DNA of 46,510 nucleotides from positions 1 to 46,510 of the IMG/VR virus record IMGVR_UViG_3300031711_000312, one strand, 5' to 3'. The translations under genes were made by a program, and so were the position numbers. The notes under the pieces are model-generated. The model had not been told where the DNA came from, made no database searches, and worked only from the letters and a program-made list of their open reading frames with translations. This document shows, piece after piece, positions 1-46,008 of the stretch (positions within the stretch are counted from its first letter, which is position 1; every line of letters starts with the position of its first letter). Source of the DNA: a virus.

Positions 1-1341
1 ATGAGTGCAACGCCAAGGAACGCAAAGCTCAGCCGATTGATTTGCGACAAGGAGTTTCGAAAGAGTGAGGCGCGCAGGGCCTCCCTTGAGCTCGATCGCT
101 TATGGCGAGCCTTGCCGAAAAAGCGGAACGCCTCTGTCGACGTAATCGACTTCTTTTCTGGTTGCGGTGGTATGTCCGCCGGGTTTCTCGCTACAAATGC
201 CATTGCCCCAATCTACAACCTTGCGATGGCAGTGGACTTAGATCGAGACGCCAATGAGACGTACGCTCGCAACATTGGCGTCCAGCCGCAACCGCTTGAC
301 GTGGCTCATCTCGCGCAGCGACCTCGGCAAGCCGCCGATCTTATCCGAAAATATCGAACCTCTGCGAAAACCCCTCTCGTGTTAATCGGATGTGCCCCTT
401 GTCAGGGGTTTTCCTCGCACAGAAATGCATCCGGCCAAACCGACCTAAGAAATTCGCTTTTTGTCTCATTTGCAAAGATCGCCGTCGAGGTCGGGCCTGA
501 TGTCATAATCATGGAAAATGTTCCCGAGATACTAAGCGACAGATATTGGCCTCTAGTAGCTGAGAGCCGTAAGACATTGGAAAAGGCCGGGTACGTTTCG
601 CGTATCATCGTGCACGATATGGCTGAATTTGGAGTGCCTCAACAACGCTTTCGCGCACTTATGATCGCCATGAAGAGACCGTTCATAATGCCTTCCGGCT
701 TTTTGAGCCGCGGCAATTATCGGACAGTCCGAGACGCGATAGGCAATTTGCCCAAGGTACAACCCGGCGAAACCTGTCCGAATGATCCGATGCACTACAC
801 CGCCGGCCATAGGGCTTCGACAGTTGAAACGATTATGGCTGTGCCGCTTAATGGCGGGAGCCGCCCCTGGCACGTCGGGCCTGAGTGCCTTAGAAGAGCT
901 GCTGCCAAGCAGGGCCGCGCCGCATACGAGGACGTATACGGACGGCTTTGGTGGGATCGACCGGCCATCACTGTCACCGCTTACGCCCGCAATCCCGCAA
1001 GCGGTAGATACGTGCATCCTGAACAGCATCGCGGACTATCGATACGGGAAGCCGCCCTGCTTCAGGGTTTTCCACGAGATTATGTTTTCTGTGGAGGCTT
1101 TGATTCTCGATTTCGTCAAATTGGAAATGCGGTTCCCCCAGCATTCGCAGCGTTCTTGGCAGTGCATTTGATAGGCGAGCTATTTCGGAGGAAGGGAGCT
1201 ACAGTTCACGAGGATCTGGATCGGACTGACATTATCGGCTCCATTGGCCCTTCCTTTTCGAGATTGATTCCGTCGTTGAAGGCCGGCCACAGGAAGATTG
1301 CGGCTGGAACAGCCGAAGCAGCCGCGATGAGAGTTGGATGA
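1..1341 (+). CDS. C5-cytosine DNA methyltransferase (first of a pair)
   Basis: 446-aa m5C methyltransferase that would transfer a methyl group from SAM to cytosine within a recognition site. Motif I (DFFSGCGGMSAGF) is near residues 50-62. Motif IV GCAPCQGFS holds the catalytic Cys at about residue 134. Motif VI is ENVPEI, motif VIII QQRFRALMIA, and motif X QIGNAVPP lies near the C-terminus, so the enzyme looks complete. About 45 residues precede motif I, more than in minimal enzymes. The stop overlaps the start of the next methyltransferase (ATGA), implying co-translation. The ATG is the first base of the window, so an upstream start cannot be excluded. Two methyltransferases together suggest an asymmetric site with each enzyme modifying one strand (inference from LlaJI/BsuMI-type systems). 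Confidence 0.93.
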   Translation: MSATPRNAKLSRLICDKEFRKSEARRASLELDRLWRALPKKRNASVDVIDFFSGCGGMSAGFLATNAIAPIYNLAMAVDLDRDANETYARNIGVQPQPLDVAHLAQRPRQAADLIRKYRTSAKTPLVLIGCAPCQGFSSHRNASGQTDLRNSLFVSFAKIAVEVGPDVIIMENVPEILSDRYWPLVAESRKTLEKAGYVSRIIVHDMAEFGVPQQRFRALMIAMKRPFIMPSGFLSRGNYRTVRDAIGNLPKVQPGETCPNDPMHYTAGHRASTVETIMAVPLNGGSRPWHVGPECLRRAAAKQGRAAYEDVYGRLWWDRPAITVTAYARNPASGRYVHPEQHRGLSIREAALLQGFPRDYVFCGGFDSRFRQIGNAVPPAFAAFLAVHLIGELFRRKGATVHEDLDRTDIIGSIGPSFSRLIPSLKAGHRKIAAGTAEAAAMRVG

Positions 1342-2438
1342 CACTGCGCGCCATAGACCTGTTTGCTGGAGCGGGTGGACTCTCGCGCGGGCTGAACGAC
1401 GCTGGGTTTGAGATTGTAGCAGCAGCGGAGAACTGGAGACCCGCAATTCGGAGCTACTCTGAGAATTTTCCTCGTCATCTCGTGATTGACGACGACTTGG
1501 GACATTCGACGTCGGAATTACTGAAAACACTAAAGTCTGTCAGTCCGATCGACCTATTAGTGGGAGGCCCTCCTTGCCAGGGCTTTTCGATCCAGCGGAT
1601 TGGTAACGACCACGACGACCGCAACACGCTTATTTATGCGTTTGCCGATATTGTAGCCGAACTGCGACCCCGCATGTTTTTAATGGAGAACGTCCCGGGA
1701 CTGCTCGGTCACAGGGGGCGGAACATCGCCCAACAATTTATGCGCCGAGTGGCGAATTCGGGCTATGATCTGGAGACTAGCGTAGTGGACGCGGCGTCGT
1801 TTGGTGTGCCGCAAATCAGGCGTCGCGTCATATTTGTCGGTTGGTTACGTGAACTGCTCCCGCGCTTCGATTTTCCTGAGCCGATACTACAAGAGGGGGA
1901 GTATCGTACTGTCGATCAGGCGATTGGCGACCTCCCTCCCCCTCCTGACGACTACTCGGCCTCGCCGAGTGATCCCTTACATCGGAAGATGAAGCTCTCG
2001 CCGCTGAACGTGGAGCGGCTAAGGCTAATTCCTCCGGGCGGTGGATTCGAAAGCTTGCCAGTTCGACTTCGCGTGAACTGCCACAAAGCGGGTGCCGATA
2101 GAATCGGGCACCGCGCCGTTTATGGCCGGCTGGATGGCAATCGCCCAGCAAATACAATTACGGCAAGGTTTGACAGTTTTACACGAGGACGTTTTGCCCA
2201 TCCGAGACAGGATCGCAATATCACTTTACGTGAGGGGGCTCGTTTGCAGAGCTTTCCCGATGATCACATCTTCTATGGCACTCAGGAAGAAATCGCTGCA
2301 CAAATAGGAAACGCCGTTCCACCACTCTTGGCAGTGCGTCTAGCTACTTCATTGCGCGACAATTTAACCAAAAAAGTTAGCCAGGCCGGAAACTCGCGGC
2401 AGGGGACATTGCTACAGCGATTCGCGTCGTTCACTTGA
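1338..2438 (+). CDS. C5-cytosine DNA methyltransferase (second of a pair)
   Basis: 366-aa m5C methyltransferase, clearly different from the upstream one. Motif I is DLFAGAGGLSRGL near residues 7-19. Motif IV GGPPCQGFS has the catalytic Cys at residue 80. Motif VI is ENVPGLL, motif VIII QIRRRVIFVG, motif X QIGNAVPPLLAVRLA. Length is normal for a single-domain m5C enzyme. It starts in a 4-base ATGA overlap with the first methyltransferase. Both are likely the protective half of the restriction system encoded just downstream, with 54 bases to the next gene. Confidence 0.93.
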   Translation: MTLRAIDLFAGAGGLSRGLNDAGFEIVAAAENWRPAIRSYSENFPRHLVIDDDLGHSTSELLKTLKSVSPIDLLVGGPPCQGFSIQRIGNDHDDRNTLIYAFADIVAELRPRMFLMENVPGLLGHRGRNIAQQFMRRVANSGYDLETSVVDAASFGVPQIRRRVIFVGWLRELLPRFDFPEPILQEGEYRTVDQAIGDLPPPPDDYSASPSDPLHRKMKLSPLNVERLRLIPPGGGFESLPVRLRVNCHKAGADRIGHRAVYGRLDGNRPANTITARFDSFTRGRFAHPRQDRNITLREGARLQSFPDDHIFYGTQEEIAAQIGNAVPPLLAVRLATSLRDNLTKKVSQAGNSRQGTLLQRFASFT

Positions 2439-2492
2439 CCAACGACGCCTTAATAGCTTGAGTCGGCAAGTCGTCATCGACGGTGAGTCGAG

Positions 2493-3317
2493 GTGCCTTG
2501 GAGCTGCTCCTTCCGTTCGACATTTCGCCTCTTTCCCAAAAATAACGGGATGAGAGACCTGGTGGACGTCTTCTTGGACGGCGACGGAATGGCTCCGGAC
2601 ACCGTGTTGAGCGCGCTGCCTTATGATACCGCGCGTTCGCATTCTCCGGGCACAACGCCTGATCCTAAACGCTATCGAGATGGTCGACAGCTTCTTCGGA
2701 CCGTCGGGTTGGTCTACGAGGAAGTTGTTGATGACACAAAGCTGCTCCGAGTGACTCCGCTCGGTAACGCCGTGAAGCGCTGGCGTCCGGTCATAAACGA
2801 AAAGAACGCCCCTGTTCTAGGCCGCCATGCAGCCCAAGCGCTCGCAGCCTGCCAGCTTCGCAATCCAACGCGCGAAGGAGGCGACTACGGATCGAATATC
2901 GTCGTCTTTCCCTTTGCGTTCATTTGGCGTGCCATGCTTGCCCTGGATGGCAATATATCCTCGGATGAACTGAACCGTGCGATCCTCAAGGTCAACACGG
3001 AAGACGACTTGATTGAGGCTATCGGCAAGATTCGTATTGCACGGTCGACTGGAGACCTGAGTGTGCTGGGCCCTGAAACAGTTCCCGAGCAGGCGAAAAA
3101 CGACCGGATACTTGTTTGGATGGCCTGGGCTTCATTTGGCTGGACTCTCATCCAGGATAAGCGTGCCGCCGGAGGAATCTACTCCATTGTTCCAAACGCA
3201 CGGAGACTAGTCTCTGACGCTGCTGCTATCCGACATCGGCATAAGGAGTTTCGTTCGGAGAGAGACTACATCGAGTATCTCTCGGCGTGCGCAGGATTAC
3301 CGGAGGATATCAGGTGA
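2493..3317 (+). CDS. Unrecognised protein of the restriction operon; candidate recognition subunit
   Basis: 274 aa from a GTG start at 2493; an ATG at 2550 is an alternative. I recognise no catalytic motif. The N-terminal half (LFPKNNGMRDLVDVFL, then VTPLGNAVKRW near residue 90) reads like a winged-helix-type fold, but that is an impression. It lies between the methyltransferase pair and the McrB-like ATPase, and its stop overlaps the ATPase start as GTGA. In BsuMI-type systems three restriction genes follow two methyltransferases, so this gene takes the place of the first. The downstream ATPase lacks the N-terminal DNA-binding domain of classic McrB, so this protein could supply target recognition (inference). 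Confidence 0.72.
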   Translation: MPWSCSFRSTFRLFPKNNGMRDLVDVFLDGDGMAPDTVLSALPYDTARSHSPGTTPDPKRYRDGRQLLRTVGLVYEEVVDDTKLLRVTPLGNAVKRWRPVINEKNAPVLGRHAAQALAACQLRNPTREGGDYGSNIVVFPFAFIWRAMLALDGNISSDELNRAILKVNTEDDLIEAIGKIRIARSTGDLSVLGPETVPEQAKNDRILVWMAWASFGWTLIQDKRAAGGIYSIVPNARRLVSDAAAIRHRHKEFRSERDYIEYLSACAGLPEDIR

Positions 3318-4165
3318 CAACTTATGGTCCCGCAACTGAACGGCAGATCGGCGCGGTCGTCGACGCCTGCGAACGATACGGCGCGACATCCATAATCACT
3401 CTCAGTGGCGTGCCGGCTACTGGGAAATCGTACATCGCTTCGATCGCCGCTCAACGACATGCAGGCGAACCGACGCGGGTTCGCGAAGTTCAATTTCACC
3501 AATCCTTCACATACGAGGAATTCATCGAGGGGCTTAGGATTGCGCCCGGCGGCGCCGTCGAGGCGTTGCCCGGGGTCTTTCTCGACTGGAACGAACGAGC
3601 GACAGAGGACGGGAAGCTCCGGTATGTGCTTTTGATTGAGGAACTGACACGCGCAAATCTTGGCTCGGTGTTGGGAGAACTCTTGACGTACGTCGAGCAC
3701 AGGAACCGCCAATTTTTCAGTTTGTTCAGCCGGCGGGCAATCAGCGTTTCCCCGACGCTCACGATTATTGCGACATTCAATCCTGTCGACAGATCCGCAA
3801 TCGATATGGACGACGCGCTTCTTCGACGCCTGCGGATCATCGACATGCCGCCCGACACTGAGCAGCTCACGGAGATGCTTGCGAACAATGGTGTGCCGCC
3901 GGCCATCGGAGAAGCGTTGCGGAGGGTCTTTGACGACAGCAAGGCCGCCTTTCCTTCGGAGTACGAAACGTTGATGCCATTCGGTCATGGAGTGTTCGCG
4001 GAAGTGCACAGCGAGGATGACCTCTATCCACTATGGCACCAGCGTATCCGCCGAATGCTCTATCGGCCGTTGCTCGACCCGCACGCGTTCGCAGAGACAA
4101 TCGAAAAGGCATACCCCTGGAAGAATAAGGACTATCGCCTTCCTGTGTCAGGCAGTCCCGGATGA
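3314..4165 (+). CDS. McrB-like AAA+ NTPase, restriction motor subunit
   Basis: 283 aa with the GTG at 3314, chosen because GGAGG at 3302-3306 sits a normal distance upstream and the start overlaps the preceding stop (GTGA). An earlier GTG at 3287 lacks this. Walker A GVPATGKSY is near residues 31-39. It is followed by FHQSFTYEEFIEGL, typical of McrB-family AAA_5 proteins. Walker B is LLIEELTRAN near residues 106-114. The McrB signature (MNTADRS in the classic enzyme) appears as FNPVDRS near residues 155-161. Only the motor domain is present. Such proteins use GTP or ATP to translocate and trigger a partner nuclease; the nucleotide here is unknown. The partner is the next gene, which starts in an ATGA overlap. 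Confidence 0.88.
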   Translation: MTTYGPATERQIGAVVDACERYGATSIITLSGVPATGKSYIASIAAQRHAGEPTRVREVQFHQSFTYEEFIEGLRIAPGGAVEALPGVFLDWNERATEDGKLRYVLLIEELTRANLGSVLGELLTYVEHRNRQFFSLFSRRAISVSPTLTIIATFNPVDRSAIDMDDALLRRLRIIDMPPDTEQLTEMLANNGVPPAIGEALRRVFDDSKAAFPSEYETLMPFGHGVFAEVHSEDDLYPLWHQRIRRMLYRPLLDPHAFAETIEKAYPWKNKDYRLPVSGSPG

Positions 4166-5418
4166 TCGTGGCGGTCCCAGAACGCGGTTCTACGCTACTT
4201 AACGTCGAACAGTGGGCGTCACTTTCGTCCGATCACCGATTTTGGCAATTGGTGAGTTCGAACATCATTGGAATTGAGTCTGGAGGTGCCGGCAGGTGGA
4301 TGCTTAAGGGCAGCTGCTACGTCGGCCGCGCCCTCATCGGCGACACACTCTTGGAGGTTTCTGAAAAATTCTCGAACTCCTTTGAAACTTTGGTTGGATT
4401 GGGCGCCCTAAAGGCGCCGAAAACGCTGCATGTTACTTCCCCAGTATCACCGTCCGCGGGATCGACGGCAATTCTTGTGTCGCTTTTCCTGCAAGCAGTT
4501 CGTACGTACCTATCGGGCAACAAGAGGAGCGTATACACGCAAGTGCCCGATGCCGGCGCGCTGATCGGCGGGCGGCTTTCCGTCAAGCGCACGATCCGGT
4601 TGCGTACAAGGGGAGCATCCCATCAGGCGGCTTTCGACCGACCGACGCTCTCAGCAGACGTGCCATTCAACAGGTGCCTTTATGCCGCCCTGCGCGAGGT
4701 CGAGCGGCTGAGCAAAGTTACCAAAATCTCAGCGTCAGATGTCGCCACAGCGCGCGCACTTCGCCTCGGGCTTTCTGAATGTCTCCCCAGCGTACTCATG
4801 TCGTATCCGGGTGAACTATCCGAAATCGCGTCCCGGGAGGCGATGTCAAATTATGCAAATCCGCAATTGCATAACGCGATTTCATTAGCAGGGGCAGTAC
4901 TCGATGCCGCGGGCTTCGGCGGTGCGGAAGCTTGGAAGCGATCCGTAGAGCGCTCCTGGTTTGTGAATTTAGAAACCTTTTTTGAAGAGGCTGTCCGTCG
5001 TTCGGTTCAGGCAGCGCTTAGCGGGAGCGCCACAGTTTGTTCTGCAAAACAGCGCCCCAATATTTTTCGACCTCGAAGTCATCGCTATCGGGCTAACCCC
5101 GATTTAGTTATCTCAAATCACCAGACAGGAGCAGTCGTTATTGGCGACGCCAAATACAAGGACTTTTCGGATTGGCCGTCCCAATCGGATGTCTACGAAT
5201 TGATTGCACACGCTTCAGCCTATGGAGCGGGCAAAGCTTTGCTGTTCTACCCTTCGGAGAGGGAGTTTATTTCTCGCCATCTCGGACTTTCCACAACCGG
5301 CTGTGACGTGTGGGCGTTTGGAATATCGTTTGGAGACTTTGCCGGTGATATTCGAAGTGCGCTTGAGATCAGCGGTCAACTGCCTGTGATCTCGAAAGAT
5401 GCGAAAGTGAGCGCCTAG
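4162..5418 (+). CDS. McrC-like PD-(D/E)XK nuclease subunit
   Basis: 418 aa, translationally coupled to the AAA subunit by ATGA. The C-terminal third carries a PD-(D/E)XK nuclease core: NPDLVIS with the first acidic residue at about D314, then GDAKYK with D329 and K331. This matches McrC-type endonuclease subunits, which bind their AAA partner and cut DNA. The N-terminal half (residues 1-200) is diverged and would be the AAA-binding part. It is longer than the roughly 350 aa usual for McrC. Genes 2493, 3314 and 4162 probably form one restriction enzyme. Confidence 0.82.
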   Translation: MIVAVPERGSTLLNVEQWASLSSDHRFWQLVSSNIIGIESGGAGRWMLKGSCYVGRALIGDTLLEVSEKFSNSFETLVGLGALKAPKTLHVTSPVSPSAGSTAILVSLFLQAVRTYLSGNKRSVYTQVPDAGALIGGRLSVKRTIRLRTRGASHQAAFDRPTLSADVPFNRCLYAALREVERLSKVTKISASDVATARALRLGLSECLPSVLMSYPGELSEIASREAMSNYANPQLHNAISLAGAVLDAAGFGGAEAWKRSVERSWFVNLETFFEEAVRRSVQAALSGSATVCSAKQRPNIFRPRSHRYRANPDLVISNHQTGAVVIGDAKYKDFSDWPSQSDVYELIAHASAYGAGKALLFYPSEREFISRHLGLSTTGCDVWAFGISFGDFAGDIRSALEISGQLPVISKDAKVSA

Positions 5419-5424
5419 CTCGAT

Positions 5425-5904
5425 ATGGATAGGTTCAGCCCGCTCAAACGTAGCGAGATCATGTCGCGCGTTAAGAGCAGAGACACCAAGCCCGAACTTC
5501 GCGTTCGGCTCTATTTGCATGCGCGAGGACTCCGTTATCGGTTGCACGATGCGAGTTTACCTGGTCATCCGGACATAGTGTTCCCATCTCGACGCATTGT
5601 CGTTTTCGTCAATGGATGTTTTTGGCATGGGCACGCGAAGTGCAGGAAGGCTTCGATTCCTGCTACCCGCGTTGAGTTCTGGACTCAGAAAATCCTTAAA
5701 AACAAACAGCGCGATCGACGCGTCCGCCTGCATTTGAAGTCACTTGGTTGGTCAGTCAGAGTACTTTGGGAATGTTCGATTTGCACGGAAACGCTAGATA
5801 GATTGGCAAGCGAGATCAAAGGGGCGCCACGTCGGACGTTCCTTCAACCTGCCCAGCATAATGGCGCAAATCGTCGTCAAGTGACACAAGCGATACGGCC
5901 CTGA
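5425..5904 (+). CDS. vsr: Very short patch repair (Vsr) endonuclease
   Basis: 159 aa. Vsr nicks DNA 5' of T:G mismatches that arise when m5C deaminates inside a methyltransferase site, limiting C-to-T mutation. Recognisable family motifs are RSEIMSRVKSRDTKPE near the N-terminus, GHPDIVF with the catalytic Asp at residue 50, NGCFWHGH carrying the active-site histidines, ATRVEFWTQKI and VLWEC. About 25 residues beyond VLWEC form a family-atypical tail. It starts 6 bases after the nuclease gene and closes the operon. Its presence fits two m5C methyltransferases upstream. Confidence 0.93.
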   Translation: MDRFSPLKRSEIMSRVKSRDTKPELRVRLYLHARGLRYRLHDASLPGHPDIVFPSRRIVVFVNGCFWHGHAKCRKASIPATRVEFWTQKILKNKQRDRRVRLHLKSLGWSVRVLWECSICTETLDRLASEIKGAPRRTFLQPAQHNGANRRQVTQAIRP

Positions 5905-6205: not shown

Positions 6206-7237
6206 TTATTTCGCTGACGTGATAAACCTCTGTGCCTTCTCAAGCCTCCGGACGCGGTCGCGCAAGATCTCGTCGCGCTTCACGTAACGGTCGATCAGGC
6301 GTTCGACCCGATCCTCCGACCAAGCCATCATGTCGGCGATTTCGCGCAAGGTGAAGCCGGCGCGGTAGAAGTTCGTCGCCGCCGTCCCGCGCAGGTCGTG
6401 GAAATGCAGGTCCTTGCCGTCCGGCCAAGCCTTCTGCATGGCCTTGTTCCAACTCGAACCGAACCCCTTCCAGGGCTTGCCATCTGAATTCGTCAGCACG
6501 GTCGTCGCCCGCTTCGGAATCTCCTTGAGCAGGGCGCGCAAATCCTTCGTCACGGGCACAACAGCGGTCCTACGGCGACGGCTCTTGCCGGTCTTGATCT
6601 CGATCGCGTGCGGGCCGACCTGGCCCCAGGCGAGCTTCAGAAGGTCTCCCTGGCGCAATCCCGTCTGGGCAGCCAGCTTCGCGGCCCAGGCGATTTCCTT
6701 GGACGTCGTCGGCCGGCTGCAGAGATGCTCGATGTCGGCGAAGGTCCAGATGATGTCCGCGCGATCGCTTTGGTAGATGTTCGGTATGCCTTCGCAGGGA
6801 TTGGTCGACAGGCCGCCTTCGCCCACGGCATAGGACAGGACGCGGGAAAGCACCTGCTTCGCCGTGTCCGCGGCCCTCGGTCGGTCTCGCCACTCGTCTC
6901 GCCACTTGCGGATATCGACCCGGATAGACGGCCGGTCGAAAAGCCTCATCGAGAGCTTGCCGAACTTCGACTTGGCGGCATCGAGCCACGGCGACCAAAC
7001 GCGCTGCGTGGATGGCGCCAGTGCCTCCCATTCGTCGCTCGCCTTGTACAATACAACCCACGCCGCGAAACGGCGCTTGTCGCATCCGGACGTCGGAATG
7101 CGGGCTTCGCAGAATTCGGCGTGAAACTCGGGTGTACCGTAGTCGGCCATGATGCGCGGGCCGCCACGCCAAGCGTAATAGTAGACCGCGCCGTTCGATT
7201 TGACGGTGTGGAGGCCTTTCAGGTCAACCATAACCAT
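6206..7237 (-). CDS. int: Tyrosine recombinase / phage integrase
   Basis: 343-aa integrase that would recombine attP with attB. The C-terminal catalytic domain shows R195 (TGLRQGDLL), H280 and R283 (HDLRGTAATNF), W306 in the position often occupied by His, and the nucleophile Y318 (LIDRYVKRDE). The N-terminal 110 residues would include the SAM-like core-binding domain. An ATG at 7231 is a possible alternative start. It is the last gene of the - strand lysogeny operon and overlaps the 3' end of the preceding small gene by 14 bases. It probably shares the promoter upstream of the HD-like gene. Confidence 0.95.
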   Translation of the reverse strand: MVMVDLKGLHTVKSNGAVYYYAWRGGPRIMADYGTPEFHAEFCEARIPTSGCDKRRFAAWVVLYKASDEWEALAPSTQRVWSPWLDAAKSKFGKLSMRLFDRPSIRVDIRKWRDEWRDRPRAADTAKQVLSRVLSYAVGEGGLSTNPCEGIPNIYQSDRADIIWTFADIEHLCSRPTTSKEIAWAAKLAAQTGLRQGDLLKLAWGQVGPHAIEIKTGKSRRRRTAVVPVTKDLRALLKEIPKRATTVLTNSDGKPWKGFGSSWNKAMQKAWPDGKDLHFHDLRGTAATNFYRAGFTLREIADMMAWSEDRVERLIDRYVKRDEILRDRVRRLEKAQRFITSAK

Positions 7238-14052: not shown

Positions 14053-15501
14053 ATGTTCAAACAATTGAAAACCGATACTCGTGAGCCGTCCCGGGCGCGT
14101 ACTCGGCTCGTTCTTAACCGAGAGCCATCTTCGCAGCTGATCAATGGTCAGTCTGATGCGACGGAACAACTCTCAGCCCGTGGCGAAGCGATCGCGACTT
14201 TGAAGCTGGGCGTCAGCTCTTGGAACGCATGGATCGCCGAGAAGCGCAAGGCTGATCCTGAGTTTCGGCCAGATCTGCGTGGAATAGACTTTCGAAGTGC
14301 CGAGTGGCGCAGTACGCCACTATGGCGGAAGACGTTCGAACGCGTCCGCGACCAGTCAAAAGAATTAATATGCCTCTTTGAAGACAAATTCACTGACCGC
14401 GGGAACTACTCCGAATTCTCTATCGTGCCGATAGATATGAAGGGTGCAATTCTGTATGACGCACATTGCGAAGGGGTCGCCCTATTTGAAGCAGATCTAC
14501 GAGGAGCGCACTTCGACAGCGCACATTTCGATCGGGCTTATTTGTCCGAAGCGCATATGGAGGGCGCAAGCCTGAACAATACCAGCTTGAGGTCAGCGGA
14601 CTTGGCAGGGGCGCATCTAGACAAGACTTACGGCAGACCCGATTTTGAGGAGGCGTTTGTTAGTGGGACGTCGTTCAATGGTGCGTATATTGGGGCTGTC
14701 AGTTTTCGCAACGCCTATCTTGGGAATGCAGATTTTGAGGATGCCGACTGCTTTTACATAAACGTTGAGGGAGCTGTCCTACGTGGGACGGACTTTACTC
14801 ACGCGCGCGTGACCGAAATTCGATATAAGCGTTACAGGGGATGGCCACTCGATATTTTCCCTTTCAATCAGGGTCTTTGGCCCTTTAAGCGCAATCTGAT
14901 GCTCGGCAACTATCTGGGAATTCGTGGGCTCGATAGTTGCTATGGCAGCCCCGGTTTTCGTCGGGATGCACTCGATCAGGACTTCGTTGATGACAAATTC
15001 GAGAGAGTCAAGCTGGTCGCAAACTCAGGTCAGGTCATAATACAGAATCGCTGGATCGGTTGGCTGGTGAATTCCGAATGGGGTTTGCGAATTCGCCGCG
15101 TACTTAGTCTTCCATTCCGCACGCGATGGACCCGACTTCCGGCTCGCCTCGCGTTCGCCATGTGGGGCTTCTTCGACTATGGTCGCAGCATGCTTTCATT
15201 GCTGGTCTTTTCCTCGCTAATTATTGGCCTCATCGGATGGTGGTATCAGGGCCTAGAAATAGCGGGCGCTATAACATTCACTGGCAATCTAGCGAACGCA
15301 GGCGCTGGGGATGCAGTCGCACAATACGCGAGGCCATGGTTTGCTGCGTTCATGGGTTTTGCAACACTCGGGATTACGGACTTGGTGCGCCCAAATACTT
15401 GGGTTGGGCAGCTTGCCATGGGACTCGATGTACTCACTGGGTTTTCGATGCTTGGGCTTTTCATAGCGGTGTTTCAAAATAAGTTCGCGAGGCGAAGCTG
15501 A
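14053..15501 (+). CDS. Pentapeptide-repeat protein fused to a two-TM ion-channel-like domain
   Basis: 482 aa. Residues about 130-260 are pentapeptide repeats (MKGAILYDAH, ADLRGAHFDSAHFDRAYLSEA, SADLAGAHL, NAYLGNADFED), expected to form a right-handed beta-helix. The C-terminus has a TM helix near 379-398 (MLSLLVFSSLIIGLIGWW), a pore-like loop near 431-446 (WFAAFMGFATLGITDLVRP) and a second TM helix near 452-476 ending GLFIAVFQNKFARRS. The layout is that of two-TM potassium channels, but the filter reads TLGITD instead of TVGYGD. Base composition is more A+T-rich than the phage genes, which suggests cargo. A membrane effector for superinfection exclusion or abortive infection is plausible but unproven. 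Confidence 0.8.
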   Translation: MFKQLKTDTREPSRARTRLVLNREPSSQLINGQSDATEQLSARGEAIATLKLGVSSWNAWIAEKRKADPEFRPDLRGIDFRSAEWRSTPLWRKTFERVRDQSKELICLFEDKFTDRGNYSEFSIVPIDMKGAILYDAHCEGVALFEADLRGAHFDSAHFDRAYLSEAHMEGASLNNTSLRSADLAGAHLDKTYGRPDFEEAFVSGTSFNGAYIGAVSFRNAYLGNADFEDADCFYINVEGAVLRGTDFTHARVTEIRYKRYRGWPLDIFPFNQGLWPFKRNLMLGNYLGIRGLDSCYGSPGFRRDALDQDFVDDKFERVKLVANSGQVIIQNRWIGWLVNSEWGLRIRRVLSLPFRTRWTRLPARLAFAMWGFFDYGRSMLSLLVFSSLIIGLIGWWYQGLEIAGAITFTGNLANAGAGDAVAQYARPWFAAFMGFATLGITDLVRPNTWVGQLAMGLDVLTGFSMLGLFIAVFQNKFARRS

Positions 15502-29994: not shown

Positions 29995-30059
29995 GCCACC
30001 GACTCAGGCCGTCCTTCCGGTTTGACTAAATTGAGCTTACAATTCCTGTCGCTGAGCAT

Positions 30060-30830
30060 ATGCGAAGCTACGGGGCGGGCATGGCAAGTGAACGTAACAG
30101 GGGGTGGAAAGAGTGGCTTTCAACCCAAACAATTCGTTGGCTCGGAATTGTAAGCGGCGCGCTGTCTCTGTTCTTTCTTGTGCAGAGGGCATGGGGTTTT
30201 GGACTATATGCAGCCTTCGAGAACATCCACGCTTATTATGTGGCAGTGTTTCATCCGCTGGCAGAGATTTTTCGCCCCTTAGCAACTTGGTTGCTAAGTC
30301 AAGTTGGTTACAAATTGCCAGTTCACTGGCACGAGCTTGTTATTCTGTATTTAGCAATGGGAGCGGCTGCGTTTCGCGCTCGCACGCCAAATTGGCAAAA
30401 GCCGTTTATGGTTAGGTATGAATTGGACAACGTCAAATTGGAGAGGCTTCGCCGCATAAGCGAAGCCCTTCGCGCGGGCAGGCGACCGGAAGAAAACGAC
30501 GACCCCGAGTTGCGTCAACGACTTTCGAGGGCGCGATGGGCGCTGCGGCGCGCATACCTATTCGAGGTGTATTTTTTTCTGACTGATGTTGCGCACATAT
30601 TCTTTTGGCCGGTGTACTGGGGGTTTGACGTATTGCAGTATAGCTACAACGCATTGACATCGCGTTCAATTTGGAGAGCCCCGACCTTATCTCTTGGGCT
30701 TGATCCAACGGATGATCAGCCGCGAGTAGTCATGCTCGGAATAATTCCACCTGATTTGTTTGAGTTTTTCAAAGTAGGGCTCGGTGCCGTTCTATTCCTG
30801 CTGCTGAATGCCGGCTTGCCCGGTAGTTAA
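30060..30830 (+). CDS. Membrane protein, putative cargo (moron)
   Basis: 256 aa; an ATG at 30081 is an alternative start. Hydrophobic segments near residues 26-45 (WLGIVSGALSLFFLVQRAWG), 90-105 (LVILYLAMGAAAF), 170-190 (VYFFLTDVAHIFFWPVYWGF) and at the C-terminus (VGLGAVLFLLLNAG), with an Arg-rich cytoplasmic stretch between. No family recognised. A+T-rich compared with neighbouring tail genes and lodged between tail tube and tail chaperone, where phages often carry morons. Superinfection exclusion or defence is possible but not shown. Confidence 0.6.
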   Translation: MRSYGAGMASERNRGWKEWLSTQTIRWLGIVSGALSLFFLVQRAWGFGLYAAFENIHAYYVAVFHPLAEIFRPLATWLLSQVGYKLPVHWHELVILYLAMGAAAFRARTPNWQKPFMVRYELDNVKLERLRRISEALRAGRRPEENDDPELRQRLSRARWALRRAYLFEVYFFLTDVAHIFFWPVYWGFDVLQYSYNALTSRSIWRAPTLSLGLDPTDDQPRVVMLGIIPPDLFEFFKVGLGAVLFLLLNAGLPGS

Positions 30831-31309
30831 AGGGGGGTATGCGGGGGAATTCGGTGACAGGAGCAATGGTACCGATGCTTCTGGAGTGAGGTGAATAGTG
30901 CTCCTGTCACCGTGTTTCCGTGTTTGTAGTCTGAGCGCGCGAACCTTCTCCCACAGAACGGCAAATGCCAAAACTCGCCGCTGAGAGAAGGTCGCATTGG
31001 CGCCAGAACCAGATATTCCAAGAACGACCCATGCCTCCCTCAAGTCACCAGCGATTCGCGACGCCGCATGCATAATCACGTATCAATGGCCGAAAGAGTT
31101 TTACACTCGGCCCGGGTCCTGTGGTAAGATACACGCGCTGAGGGAATGAACAGTGAAGATTAGAGCAAGACATAAATCCGTAGTCGCTGATGCAGTGACC
31201 CGTCTCTAGAGTAGGGTCGGATGCGAATAGAGCTCTGCTTATGCAACTCTGATAAAGCATCCAACGGCTCGTACATGGCTTTCTAACTCGCACTGGACGT
31301 CGAATCGGC
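30831..31309. repeat. Gene-free region with two inverted-repeat elements
   Basis: CGGTGACAGGAGCA (30852-30865) and TGCTCCTGTCACCG (30899-30912) are perfect 14-bp inverted copies. ACCTTCTC (30943-30950) and GAGAAGGT (30985-30992) form a second pair. The style recalls REP-type intergenic palindromes of chromosomes rather than phage DNA. A - strand frame (31079-30792) only reads through these repeats. The remaining 300 bases show nothing identifiable. Confidence 0.5.
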
Positions 31310-32149
31310 ATGGGAGAGCGATGGAAAAGTACGGGCCTCCACAGCTCTCCCACCCTCATTCCAAATGATTTGGGTTTTCCGCCCTATCGGGATTGGCTTT
31401 CTCTCACCAAAACTGCAGGAAAGTACTTTGCGCTTGCGCATACGCTATCGTCTTTCCCGCCAGCTTGGATCAAATGGGCCGATCGCAAAGCGTTGCTATG
31501 TTCGCGCCGCGGGTTCGTTACCAAAGACCCCATTGCTTACCGCATGGCGATTCTATGGAACGGGATCATTTTGCTCCAGGAGAGCAAGTTTCTCTGCGAT
31601 ATGATGGAAAACTCACTTCGAATCGGCGTGTACCGGCATTGTGTGCTTCGTGCCGTTCCGCTGCAGAGTATCTATGTCCGTAGCTGGGAACGCACGCGAT
31701 CTCGCTTCGAAAAGGACTACAAGACAAAGTTGGACCTGTCGGCACCTATTCCCGAGCTGATGCTGTCCTCAATGGACTTCGGCCTCATTCCTCAACTTAT
31801 CACGGACAATTGGAGACGAATAAAATTGTCGCCGAGTTTCGAAATTGGATTTGGCGACTTGTTTTGGCGAAAGCGAGCATGTCGCGACAAAAATTTGTTC
31901 GCGCATGATATGGGAGTTATCAGAGAGGCGCACAATGCACTCGCACACTCCAAGAAGCTATTTGAAGAAACCGAGGTGCTGAGAATCTATAGCGTTGTGC
32001 AGCGATGGCTGGACGCGATTGACATTGGTCTCGCTCCGCGTATCGCACAATATCGACAGCATCGGCGTGATTATCTCGCAGAAATCCCAATGGTGGGCGA
32101 AAGCAGCCACAAAACTCGTACGCCCTTCGGTGTATCAACGCCATCGTGA
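31310..32149 (+). CDS. HEPN-like protein, putative cargo
   Basis: 279 aa, not previously recognised as a whole. The C-terminal part (MGVIREAHNALAHSKKLFEE, then VLRIYSVVQRWLDAIDIG) resembles the Swt1-type HEPN helix pair, whose core is RNxxAH. Here R205, N209 and H213 are present but the motif reads HNALAH, so RNase activity is uncertain. The N-terminal 190 residues are Trp/Arg-rich with no motif. Lower GC than the phage genes. HEPN proteins often act in toxin or abortive-infection systems. No good ribosome-binding site precedes the ATG. Confidence 0.55.
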   Translation: MGERWKSTGLHSSPTLIPNDLGFPPYRDWLSLTKTAGKYFALAHTLSSFPPAWIKWADRKALLCSRRGFVTKDPIAYRMAILWNGIILLQESKFLCDMMENSLRIGVYRHCVLRAVPLQSIYVRSWERTRSRFEKDYKTKLDLSAPIPELMLSSMDFGLIPQLITDNWRRIKLSPSFEIGFGDLFWRKRACRDKNLFAHDMGVIREAHNALAHSKKLFEETEVLRIYSVVQRWLDAIDIGLAPRIAQYRQHRRDYLAEIPMVGESSHKTRTPFGVSTPS

Positions 32150-45290: not shown

Positions 45291-45408
45291 CGCATCCTAA
45301 ATTGCGAACCTGCCCTTGCTACCCCCGGTCTCGCCGACGGGCACACGAATTGTGAAACCGTGCAACCGGTGCGACGCTCGCAGCTAGATTGTCGCGGAGG
45401 AGAATCCG

Positions 45409-45867: not shown

Positions 45868-46008
45868 AGCGCGTCCCTGCGGGATCTGGCTCTAGGCGTT
45901 GCCCCGAACCCGCAAGCGGTTTCGGCCATTCGGTAACGATCCCTCGCGCCGATCAGAAATTGGTCACATTCTTTGCGGGCTTGCTCACTTCGGAGTGGAG
46001 CCCGACCT

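What the first reader, a model, noticed from the sequence alone, without database searches (positions are those of the whole stretch)
1..5904. BsuMI/LlaJI-like restriction system with split recognition and Vsr
Two distinct m5C methyltransferases, an unknown 274-aa protein, a motor-only McrB-like AAA (FNPVDRS in place of MNTADRS), a McrC-like nuclease and Vsr form one overlapping operon. Paired methyltransferases suggest an asymmetric site. A GTP/ATP-driven cutter coupled to cognate methylation differs from the methyl-dependent McrBC paradigm. The 274-aa protein is a candidate recognition subunit not tied to a known family here.
Basis: partly seen in the sequence, partly recalled or inferred. 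Interest (0 to 1): 0.55.

Follow-up and report, generated by a model that had tools for sequence, protein, structure and literature searches.

The report
McrBC-type restriction with type IIS-like reader
A bacterial DNA-defence gene set pairs an McrBC-like molecular motor and cutter with two DNA-methylating enzymes and a separate small protein whose predicted shape matches the DNA-reading part of type IIS restriction enzymes, which suggests how such motor-driven cutters can be aimed at a chosen unmethylated sequence.

Summary
In detail: an intact operon M1-M2-X-AAA-McrC-Vsr fills bases 1-5904 (AAA probably starts at 3314). The five-gene core M1-M2-X-AAA-McrC recurs in nine independent loci; Vsr is present in six. 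The unknown 274-aa protein X is the main result. Two AlphaFold models (window; Phycisphaerales homologue, 43% identical) match with confidence only the DNA-recognition domains of Nt.BspD6I and BpuJI, over almost all of X and without their nuclease part. X's stop codon overlaps or abuts the AAA start in eight of nine loci. So X is most likely a detached type IIS/IIT-style site reader loading an N-domain-less McrB motor and McrC nuclease. That supports an asymmetric target with one methyltransferase per strand. The target-recognition regions of M1 and M2 are more conserved than their catalytic cores, so one site is probably shared across phyla. The LlaJI/BsuMI label fits the way it works, not strict membership: the nuclease is McrC-type (PF10117), not RE_LlaJI, and a clade joining this AAA with LlaJI is rejected (p 0.0003). 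Restricting unmethylated DNA with an McrBC-like enzyme was already known from LlaJI; the stand-alone type IIS-like reader on a true McrB/McrC engine appears new. Function, site and nucleotide are untested.

The parts
1..1341 (+). M1, m5C DNA methyltransferase (446 aa); starts at the first base of the record, so its promoter is not in the window
   Evidence: PF00145 1.2e-47; TIGR00675 above cut-off
667..1029 (+). M1 target-recognition region (residues 223-343, between motifs VIII and IX)
   Evidence: mean pairwise identity 0.673 against 0.548 for the catalytic part, 36 pairs of 9 loci
1338..2438 (+). M2, second m5C DNA methyltransferase (366 aa)
   Evidence: PF00145 5.3e-65; 34% identical to M1
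1839..2213 (+). M2 target-recognition region (residues 168-292)
   Evidence: mean pairwise identity 0.598 against 0.507 for the catalytic part
2493..3317 (+). X, 274 aa, predicted stand-alone DNA-recognition subunit (BspD6I/BpuJI recognition-domain fold, no nuclease domain)
   Evidence: models; Foldseek; VIA; RE_AlwI 0.0027 in one homologue
3314..3317 (+). GTGA overlap of AAA start and X stop (translational coupling)
   Evidence: sequence; overlapping or abutting in 8 of 9 loci
3314..4165 (+). McrB-like AAA+ motor without N-terminal domain (283 aa; the ORF list gives 3287 as the first possible start)
   Evidence: AAA_5; alignment A2 profile matches E. coli McrB 6hz4 at 7.9e-32
3407..3430 (+). 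Walker A (GVPATGKS)
   Evidence: invariant G and K-S in 9 of 9
3626..3643 (+). Walker B, VLLIEE (Glu where McrB has Asp)
   Evidence: IEE or VEE in 9 of 9 family rows
3776..3796 (+). FNPVDRS (McrB signature NxxD, first Met replaced)
   Evidence: [FYL]NPxDRS in 9 of 9
4162..5418 (+). McrC-type PD-(D/E)XK nuclease subunit (418 aa)
   Evidence: PF10117 5.5e-16; alignment A3 profile matches T. gammatolerans McrC 6ut5_G 2.8e-5
5098..5154 (+). nuclease motif PD...DAK (P313, D314, D329, K331)
   Evidence: invariant in alignment A8, 8 of 8 rows
5425..5904 (+). Vsr mismatch endonuclease, optional companion
   Evidence: TIGR00632 145.8 bits, cut-off 97.85; Vsr in 6 of 9 independent loci

Best explanation
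This is a restriction-modification system built on a true McrB/McrC engine. X binds a short, probably asymmetric, unmethylated sequence through a type IIS/IIT-style recognition fold. It recruits or anchors the N-domain-less McrB-like AAA+ ring, which uses GTP or ATP and hands the DNA to the McrC nuclease; cleavage is then probably near or between sites. M1 and M2 each methylate a cytosine of that site, one per strand, and this blocks X. Vsr repairs T:G mismatches left when the 5-methylcytosines deaminate. Shown here: gene content, conserved order, homologies, intact motifs, predicted fold of X, X-AAA coupling, conserved recognition regions. Inferred: DNA binding by X, X-AAA contact, one MTase per strand, protection by methylation, cleavage mode, nucleotide.
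For: Fold of X: 12 of 265 Foldseek matches reach E<=0.001 and all 12 are BspD6I (8) or BpuJI (4); VIA Z 15.4 over 234 residues to BspD6I 11-302 and 13.3 to BpuJI against 8.5 for the next fold. Replicate on the Phycisphaerales homologue: 10 of 298, same two proteins; Z 15.6 and 13.1, next 8.9. RE_AlwI (family of BspD6I by recall) gives a sub-cut-off match to one of 8 members, E 0.0027. X stop and AAA start overlap or abut in 8 of 9 loci, and their divergence correlates at 0.91, the second highest of ten gene pairs. Five-gene set in 9 of 9 loci. M1 and M2 recognition regions more conserved than cores. Type IIT enzymes recognise asymmetric sites and generally come with two MTases, one per strand (PMC4081073, passages); LlaJI is a precedent (PMC12707154, passage).
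Against: No biochemical or genetic data. The X models have moderate confidence (pLDDT 79.3 and 73.6), rest on one 8-sequence set, and sequence identity to BspD6I is about 10-16%. Window X itself has no Pfam hit at E up to 10. Sensor-1 Met and Walker B Asp are replaced in all 9 family rows, so NTP use may differ from McrB. Two MTases could also serve a symmetric site (BsuMI, recalled).
Confidence: 0.68

Rival explanations
1. Modification-dependent (type IV) system: X is a winged-helix sensor of a modified base, and the two methyltransferases belong to a separate function or protect in another way.
For: Engine is of the McrBC lineage; winged-helix domains can sense N6-methyladenine (PMC11037411, abstract start in search listing only).
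Against: M1 and M2 are present in 9 of 9 loci, next to X or on the facing strand of the same cassette; X matches full tandem recognition domains of sequence-specific enzymes, not only single winged helices; no DUF3578, YTH or EVE domain was reported in any of the proteins.
Confidence: 0.12
2. Asymmetry is wrong: M1 and M2 act on one palindromic site (as recalled for BsuMI) or on two different sites, and X reads a symmetric or composite sequence.
For: M1 and M2 are related to each other (34% identity, shared framework in the recognition region); BsuMI precedent by recall.
Against: Recognition loops differ between M1 and M2 and each is separately conserved; X's fold relatives read asymmetric sites (PMC4081073 passages, for BspD6I; BpuJI by recall).
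Confidence: 0.2
3. X is an adaptor or regulator (for example a transcription factor) and DNA specificity lies elsewhere, for example in McrC or in a methyltransferase.
For: Parts of X resemble MarR-type winged helices (Z about 8).
Against: Those matches cover about 70-90 residues only, while BspD6I/BpuJI cover 217-241; AAA has no N-terminal domain left to carry specificity; X is coupled to AAA.
Confidence: 0.1

Closest known systems
LlaJI (Lactococcus; two m5C MTases, R1 McrB-like, R2 RE_LlaJI)
   Same: Two m5C methyltransferases plus an McrB-like motor and a PD-(D/E)XK nuclease; unmethylated asymmetric site in LlaJI (PMC1459862 passages)
   Different: Nuclease PF10117 not PF09563; recognition in a separate protein, not fused; AAA in another clade
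BsuMI and LlaI (three-ORF restriction cassettes, small McrB-like subunits of 343 and 337 aa; PMC1459862 section 5)
   Same: Separate third protein, small AAA without N-terminal half, nuclease gene; for BsuMI also two MTases (bsuMA/ydiO and bsuMB/ydiP, PMC8156514 passage)
   Different: Sequences of YdiR and LlaI subunits not available here, so homology of the third protein is untested; a similar three-ORF cassette seen here (L027) has an unrelated AAA lineage and its third protein does not match X significantly
Nt.BspD6I / BpuJI / FokI recognition domains (type IIS and IIT)
   Same: Predicted fold of X, over the recognition domain; FokI only at background level
   Different: X has no nuclease domain; cleavage is supplied by an AAA motor and McrC
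E. coli and T. gammatolerans McrBC (type IV)
   Same: Motor and nuclease families
   Different: No modified-base domain; two MTases and X present; [FYL]NPxDRS and IEE/VEE motifs
Alphaproteobacterial plasmid cassettes MTase - McrB - McrC (L004, L005, L006)
   Same: Sister clade of this AAA (100/99), NPxDRS motif, McrC PF10117 in L004
   Different: One site-specific MTase (N6_N4_Mtase in L004), and a fused N-terminal region of about 240 aa that does not match X

Membership tests
LlaJI family | Nuclease subunit of family RE_LlaJI (PF09563) | tested here: not met
   0 of 1 records match PF09563; LlaJI R2 does at 3.8e-31; window nuclease is PF10117
LlaJI family | McrB-like subunit of the LlaJI lineage | tested here: not met
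   AU test rejects one clade, p 0.00026; groups chosen after seeing a first tree
LlaJI family | Two m5C methyltransferases in the operon | tested here: met
LlaJI family | Restriction of unmethylated DNA at an asymmetric site | not testable with these tools
   needs methylome and plating
BsuMI | Three-gene restriction cassette with a small N-domain-less McrB-like subunit | tested here: met
   description of BsuMI from PMC1459862 section 5
BsuMI | Third protein homologous to YdiR | not testable with these tools
   no BsuMI sequence could be reached; B. subtilis control only rings for PF09563
McrBC type IV | McrB-type AAA+ core with NxxD signature and McrC-type nuclease | tested here: met
McrBC type IV | Modified-base-binding domain (DUF3578, YTH, EVE) | tested here: not met
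   no such family in any of the 6 proteins at E up to 1; Walker A lies about 30 residues from the AAA N-terminus
BspD6I/BpuJI-type recognition module | Tandem winged-helix recognition fold | tested here: met
   two predicted models; predicted, not solved
AlwI restriction endonucleases (PF09491) | Score above Pfam cut-off | tested here: not met
   best of 9 members tested 17.2 bits against 23.1 (window)
Type IIS/IIT endonuclease | Nuclease domain in the recognition chain | tested here: not met
   X ends where the recognition domain ends
Vsr | TIGR00632 above cut-off | tested here: met
   145.8 against 97.85 bits

The most novel reading that the evidence does not exclude
A distinct class of restriction enzyme in which the site reader of a type IIS/IIT enzyme has become a free-standing, HsdS-like specificity subunit for an McrB/McrC motor-nuclease, with a fixed asymmetric site kept across phyla and cleavage that depends on translocation or on two sites. 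McrBC-like engines would then be general cutters whose target is set by an exchangeable, separately encoded reader.
Probability: 0.4. Interest if true: 0.72.

Novelty: new variant of a known kind. Interest (0 to 1): 0.55.

Why it matters
How an AAA+ motor of the McrB type is aimed at DNA is known for fused domains (DUF3578, YTH, B3). A separate, compact reader with the fold of type IIS enzymes makes the step testable with purified parts: site, motor and nuclease are three proteins. It also gives a concrete candidate function for the unexplained third protein of BsuMI/LlaI-like cassettes, and a possible source of retargetable long-range cutters. If the site really is the same across phyla, one methylome would identify it for the whole family.

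Tried and rejected
Tried without result: X in plasmids (0 of 72,556 records) and phages (0 of 50,697); a second viral scan with the X alignment found only the two known loci; X in genomes: order of G002 1 of 397, the seed itself, phylum of G003 2 of 398, the seed and one whose match scores the same as L011/L012. The first look scores at most 6 candidates a genome, so distant relatives may be missed. att repeats: no shared exact repeat over 15 bases between the cassette/integrase side and the rest of the record, so whether the cassette lies inside the prophage is open. Host: right end against 297 genomes gave only short matches; megablast to phages none; no tRNA or Rfam match. The third protein of L027 had no relative beyond its own record in viral contigs, none in plasmids, and no PDB sequence match of note.

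Considered and rejected: LlaJI membership; X as a relative of the LlaJI R1 N-terminal half (hhalign E 0.059, shuffled control 0.29) or of the third protein of L027 (0.066, same call): not significant, left open; X as the N-terminal region of the sister plasmid proteins (E 0.68). The PDB sequence match of X to 9lgi_A (0.035) is too weak to use. The AAA clade with L027 was also rejected (p-AU 0.0024). FokI matches X less well (Z 7.7 and 8.2), at the level of background folds.

Recognition sites of BspD6I, BpuJI, AlwI and BsuMI, that AlwI is the family of BspD6I, and the HsdS comparison are recalled.

Rows dropped: L012 and L019 (same X match as L011), L020 (same record as L002), L022 (same record as L003), L015-L018 (same places as L008, L009, L010, L013) and L034 (same record as L027) were not counted as independent. 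Alignments A7 and A8 hold 8 rows, without L021; the 9-locus counts are. The AAA tree (26 rows) used 5 of the 10 more distant AAA loci L024-L033 besides L027. In one search the AAA starts typed for L009 and L021 were a few bases early; the overlap was read from the printed sequence.
Full report
Observation. The window is a virus record of 46,510 bases. Bases 1-5904 hold six intact, same-strand genes: M1, M2, X, AAA, McrC-type, Vsr. Families confirm two m5C methyltransferases, an AAA_5 motor related to McrB, a PF10117 McrC-type nuclease and Vsr; X (274 aa) matches nothing in Pfam, PADLOC or NCBIfam. AAA most likely starts at GTG 3314, overlapping the X stop, since in the nearest homologue (L008) the frame opens exactly there.

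Conservation. X finds L002 and L003 in viral contigs (2 of 6 candidate stretches) and L008-L013 in genome contigs (6 of 78); the AAA alignment adds L021 (14 loci, of which 3 records belong to this family). Removing duplicates (L012 as L011, L020 as L002, L022 as L003) leaves nine independent loci with the window: Mesorhizobium, Rhizobium, Novosphingobium, a Magnetococcales/Nitrospinota MAG contig, a Phycisphaerales MAG and viral contigs. M1, M2, X, AAA and McrC are present in 9 of 9; in the Phycisphaerales contig the two methyltransferases face the other genes. Vsr is in 6 of 9 (window, L008, L009, L011, L013, L021), on varying sides and strands; in L002 and L003 only one side is visible, and L010 shows none on either side. 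X is rare.

What X is. AlphaFold2 on the 8-sequence alignment gives pLDDT 79.3, pTM 0.79. Foldseek against the PDB gives 265 matches, 12 at E<=0.001, all Nt.BspD6I or the BpuJI recognition domain. VIA-align: Z 15.4, rmsd 3.7 over 234 residues to BspD6I residues 11-302; Z 13.3 to BpuJI; the next fold 8.5. With the Phycisphaerales homologue as query (pLDDT 73.6) the result repeats: 10 of 298 at E<=0.001, the same two proteins, Z 15.6 and 13.1 against 8.9. The two models share one set of sequences, so they are not fully independent. Sequence support is weak but points the same way: RE_AlwI at E 0.0027, below cut-off, in one of the members. X ends where the recognition domain of BspD6I ends; no nuclease part is there.

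The motor and nuclease. The three-sequence AAA profile matches E. coli McrB structures at 7.9e-32 and the McrC profile T. gammatolerans McrC at 2.8e-5. Walker A, N-x-x-D-R-S and the nuclease residues are invariant. Two departures hold in 9 of 9 family rows: Walker B is IEE or VEE and the signature is [FYL]NPxDRS, where PMC7680126 gives MNxxDRS for McrB homologues (passages). Guanine contacts in known McrB lie upstream of the AAA core (same paper, passages), a part missing or different here, so GTP against ATP cannot be predicted.

Coupling and specificity. The X stop overlaps or abuts the AAA start in 8 of 9 loci, and X and AAA divergences correlate at 0.91 over 36 pairs (M1-McrC 0.93, others 0.69-0.83); shared ancestry alone gives high values, so this is supportive only. 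Recognition regions of M1 and M2 are more conserved than their catalytic cores (0.673 against 0.548; 0.598 against 0.507). X itself (0.52) is less conserved than AAA (0.62) but far more than McrC (0.36). I read this as one fixed target shared by the family.

Mechanism. Best reading: X reads an asymmetric unmethylated site, loads the AAA ring, McrC cuts, M1 and M2 protect one strand each, Vsr repairs deaminated m5C. Type IIT enzymes such as BspD6I read asymmetric sites with the large subunit and generally have two MTases (PMC4081073 passages). The reading and cutting functions of type IIS enzymes can be split into separate chains (same call).

Comparison with known systems. LlaJI is the nearest described system by function (PMC1459862 passages and section 5; PMC12707154 passage). 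I met LlaJI itself on a Lactococcus plasmid: R1 585 aa, R2 RE_LlaJI. The window AAA matches R1 at 9e-11; the methyltransferases are 23-26% identical; X has no convincing match to any LlaJI protein and McrC none. The AAA tree puts the nine family rows together (100/100) with alphaproteobacterial plasmid cassettes as sister (100/99) and LlaJI in another clade; forcing LlaJI and the family together is rejected (p-AU 0.00026), with the caution that groups were chosen after a first tree. BsuMI and LlaI also have three-gene restriction cassettes with small McrB-like subunits; their third proteins could not be compared. L027 shows the same arrangement with an unrelated AAA lineage, so the split may have arisen more than once. 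PMC11090510 reports MTase-associated McrB branches and defers them to a later paper (passages); searches for such a paper or for a BspD6I-like reader with McrBC found none in the listings of the held library.

Context. The cassette lies beside a tyrosine integrase (6206-7237, minus) and a tailed prophage (terminase, portal, tape measure). Its GC is 0.55 against 0.62. No att repeat was found, and the record starts at the M1 start codon, so whether it is phage cargo or host flank is undecided. L009 also has an integrase-like gene beside Vsr, and L002, L003 and L021 have serine-recombinase-like genes beside the cassette (read from translations; no family search was run on them).

Verdict. Observation confirmed; interpretation partly supported; new variant of a known kind, with one clear advance: a predicted structural identity for the unknown subunit.

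Noticed in passing
L027:1-4291: Viral contig with m5C MTase, 287-aa unknown, small AAA (331 aa) and PF10117 nuclease: a BsuMI/LlaI-style three-ORF cassette on a different AAA lineage; third protein unidentified.
   Followed up: partly
L023:2448-7862: Two m5C MTases, a 697-aa McrB-like protein with a long N-terminal region and an McrC-type nuclease: LlaJI order with a non-LlaJI nuclease.
   Followed up: partly
L004:4252-8132, L005, L006: Alphaproteobacterial plasmids carry MTase-McrB-McrC cassettes with a shared 240-aa N-terminal region of unknown fold; sister clade to this family.
   Followed up: partly
L009:9618-10910: McrC is only 39% identical to the window's while its AAA is 72%; the nuclease may have been replaced or evolve faster there.
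   Followed up: no
L011 and L012: Near-identical cassette contigs are binned as Magnetococcales and as Nitrospinota MAGs; one assignment is probably wrong.
   Followed up: no
window 14053-15501: Pentapeptide-repeat protein in a low-GC patch (0.526) of the prophage between early genes and terminase, a likely added gene.
   Followed up: no
window 30001-32149: Low-GC patch (about 0.51-0.52) with two ORFs of 256 and 279 aa without Pfam match.
   Followed up: no
window 45314-45343 and 45869-45949: Short stretches that recur, sometimes repeatedly, in many genomes of the family of G001; no tRNA or Rfam family there.
   Followed up: partly
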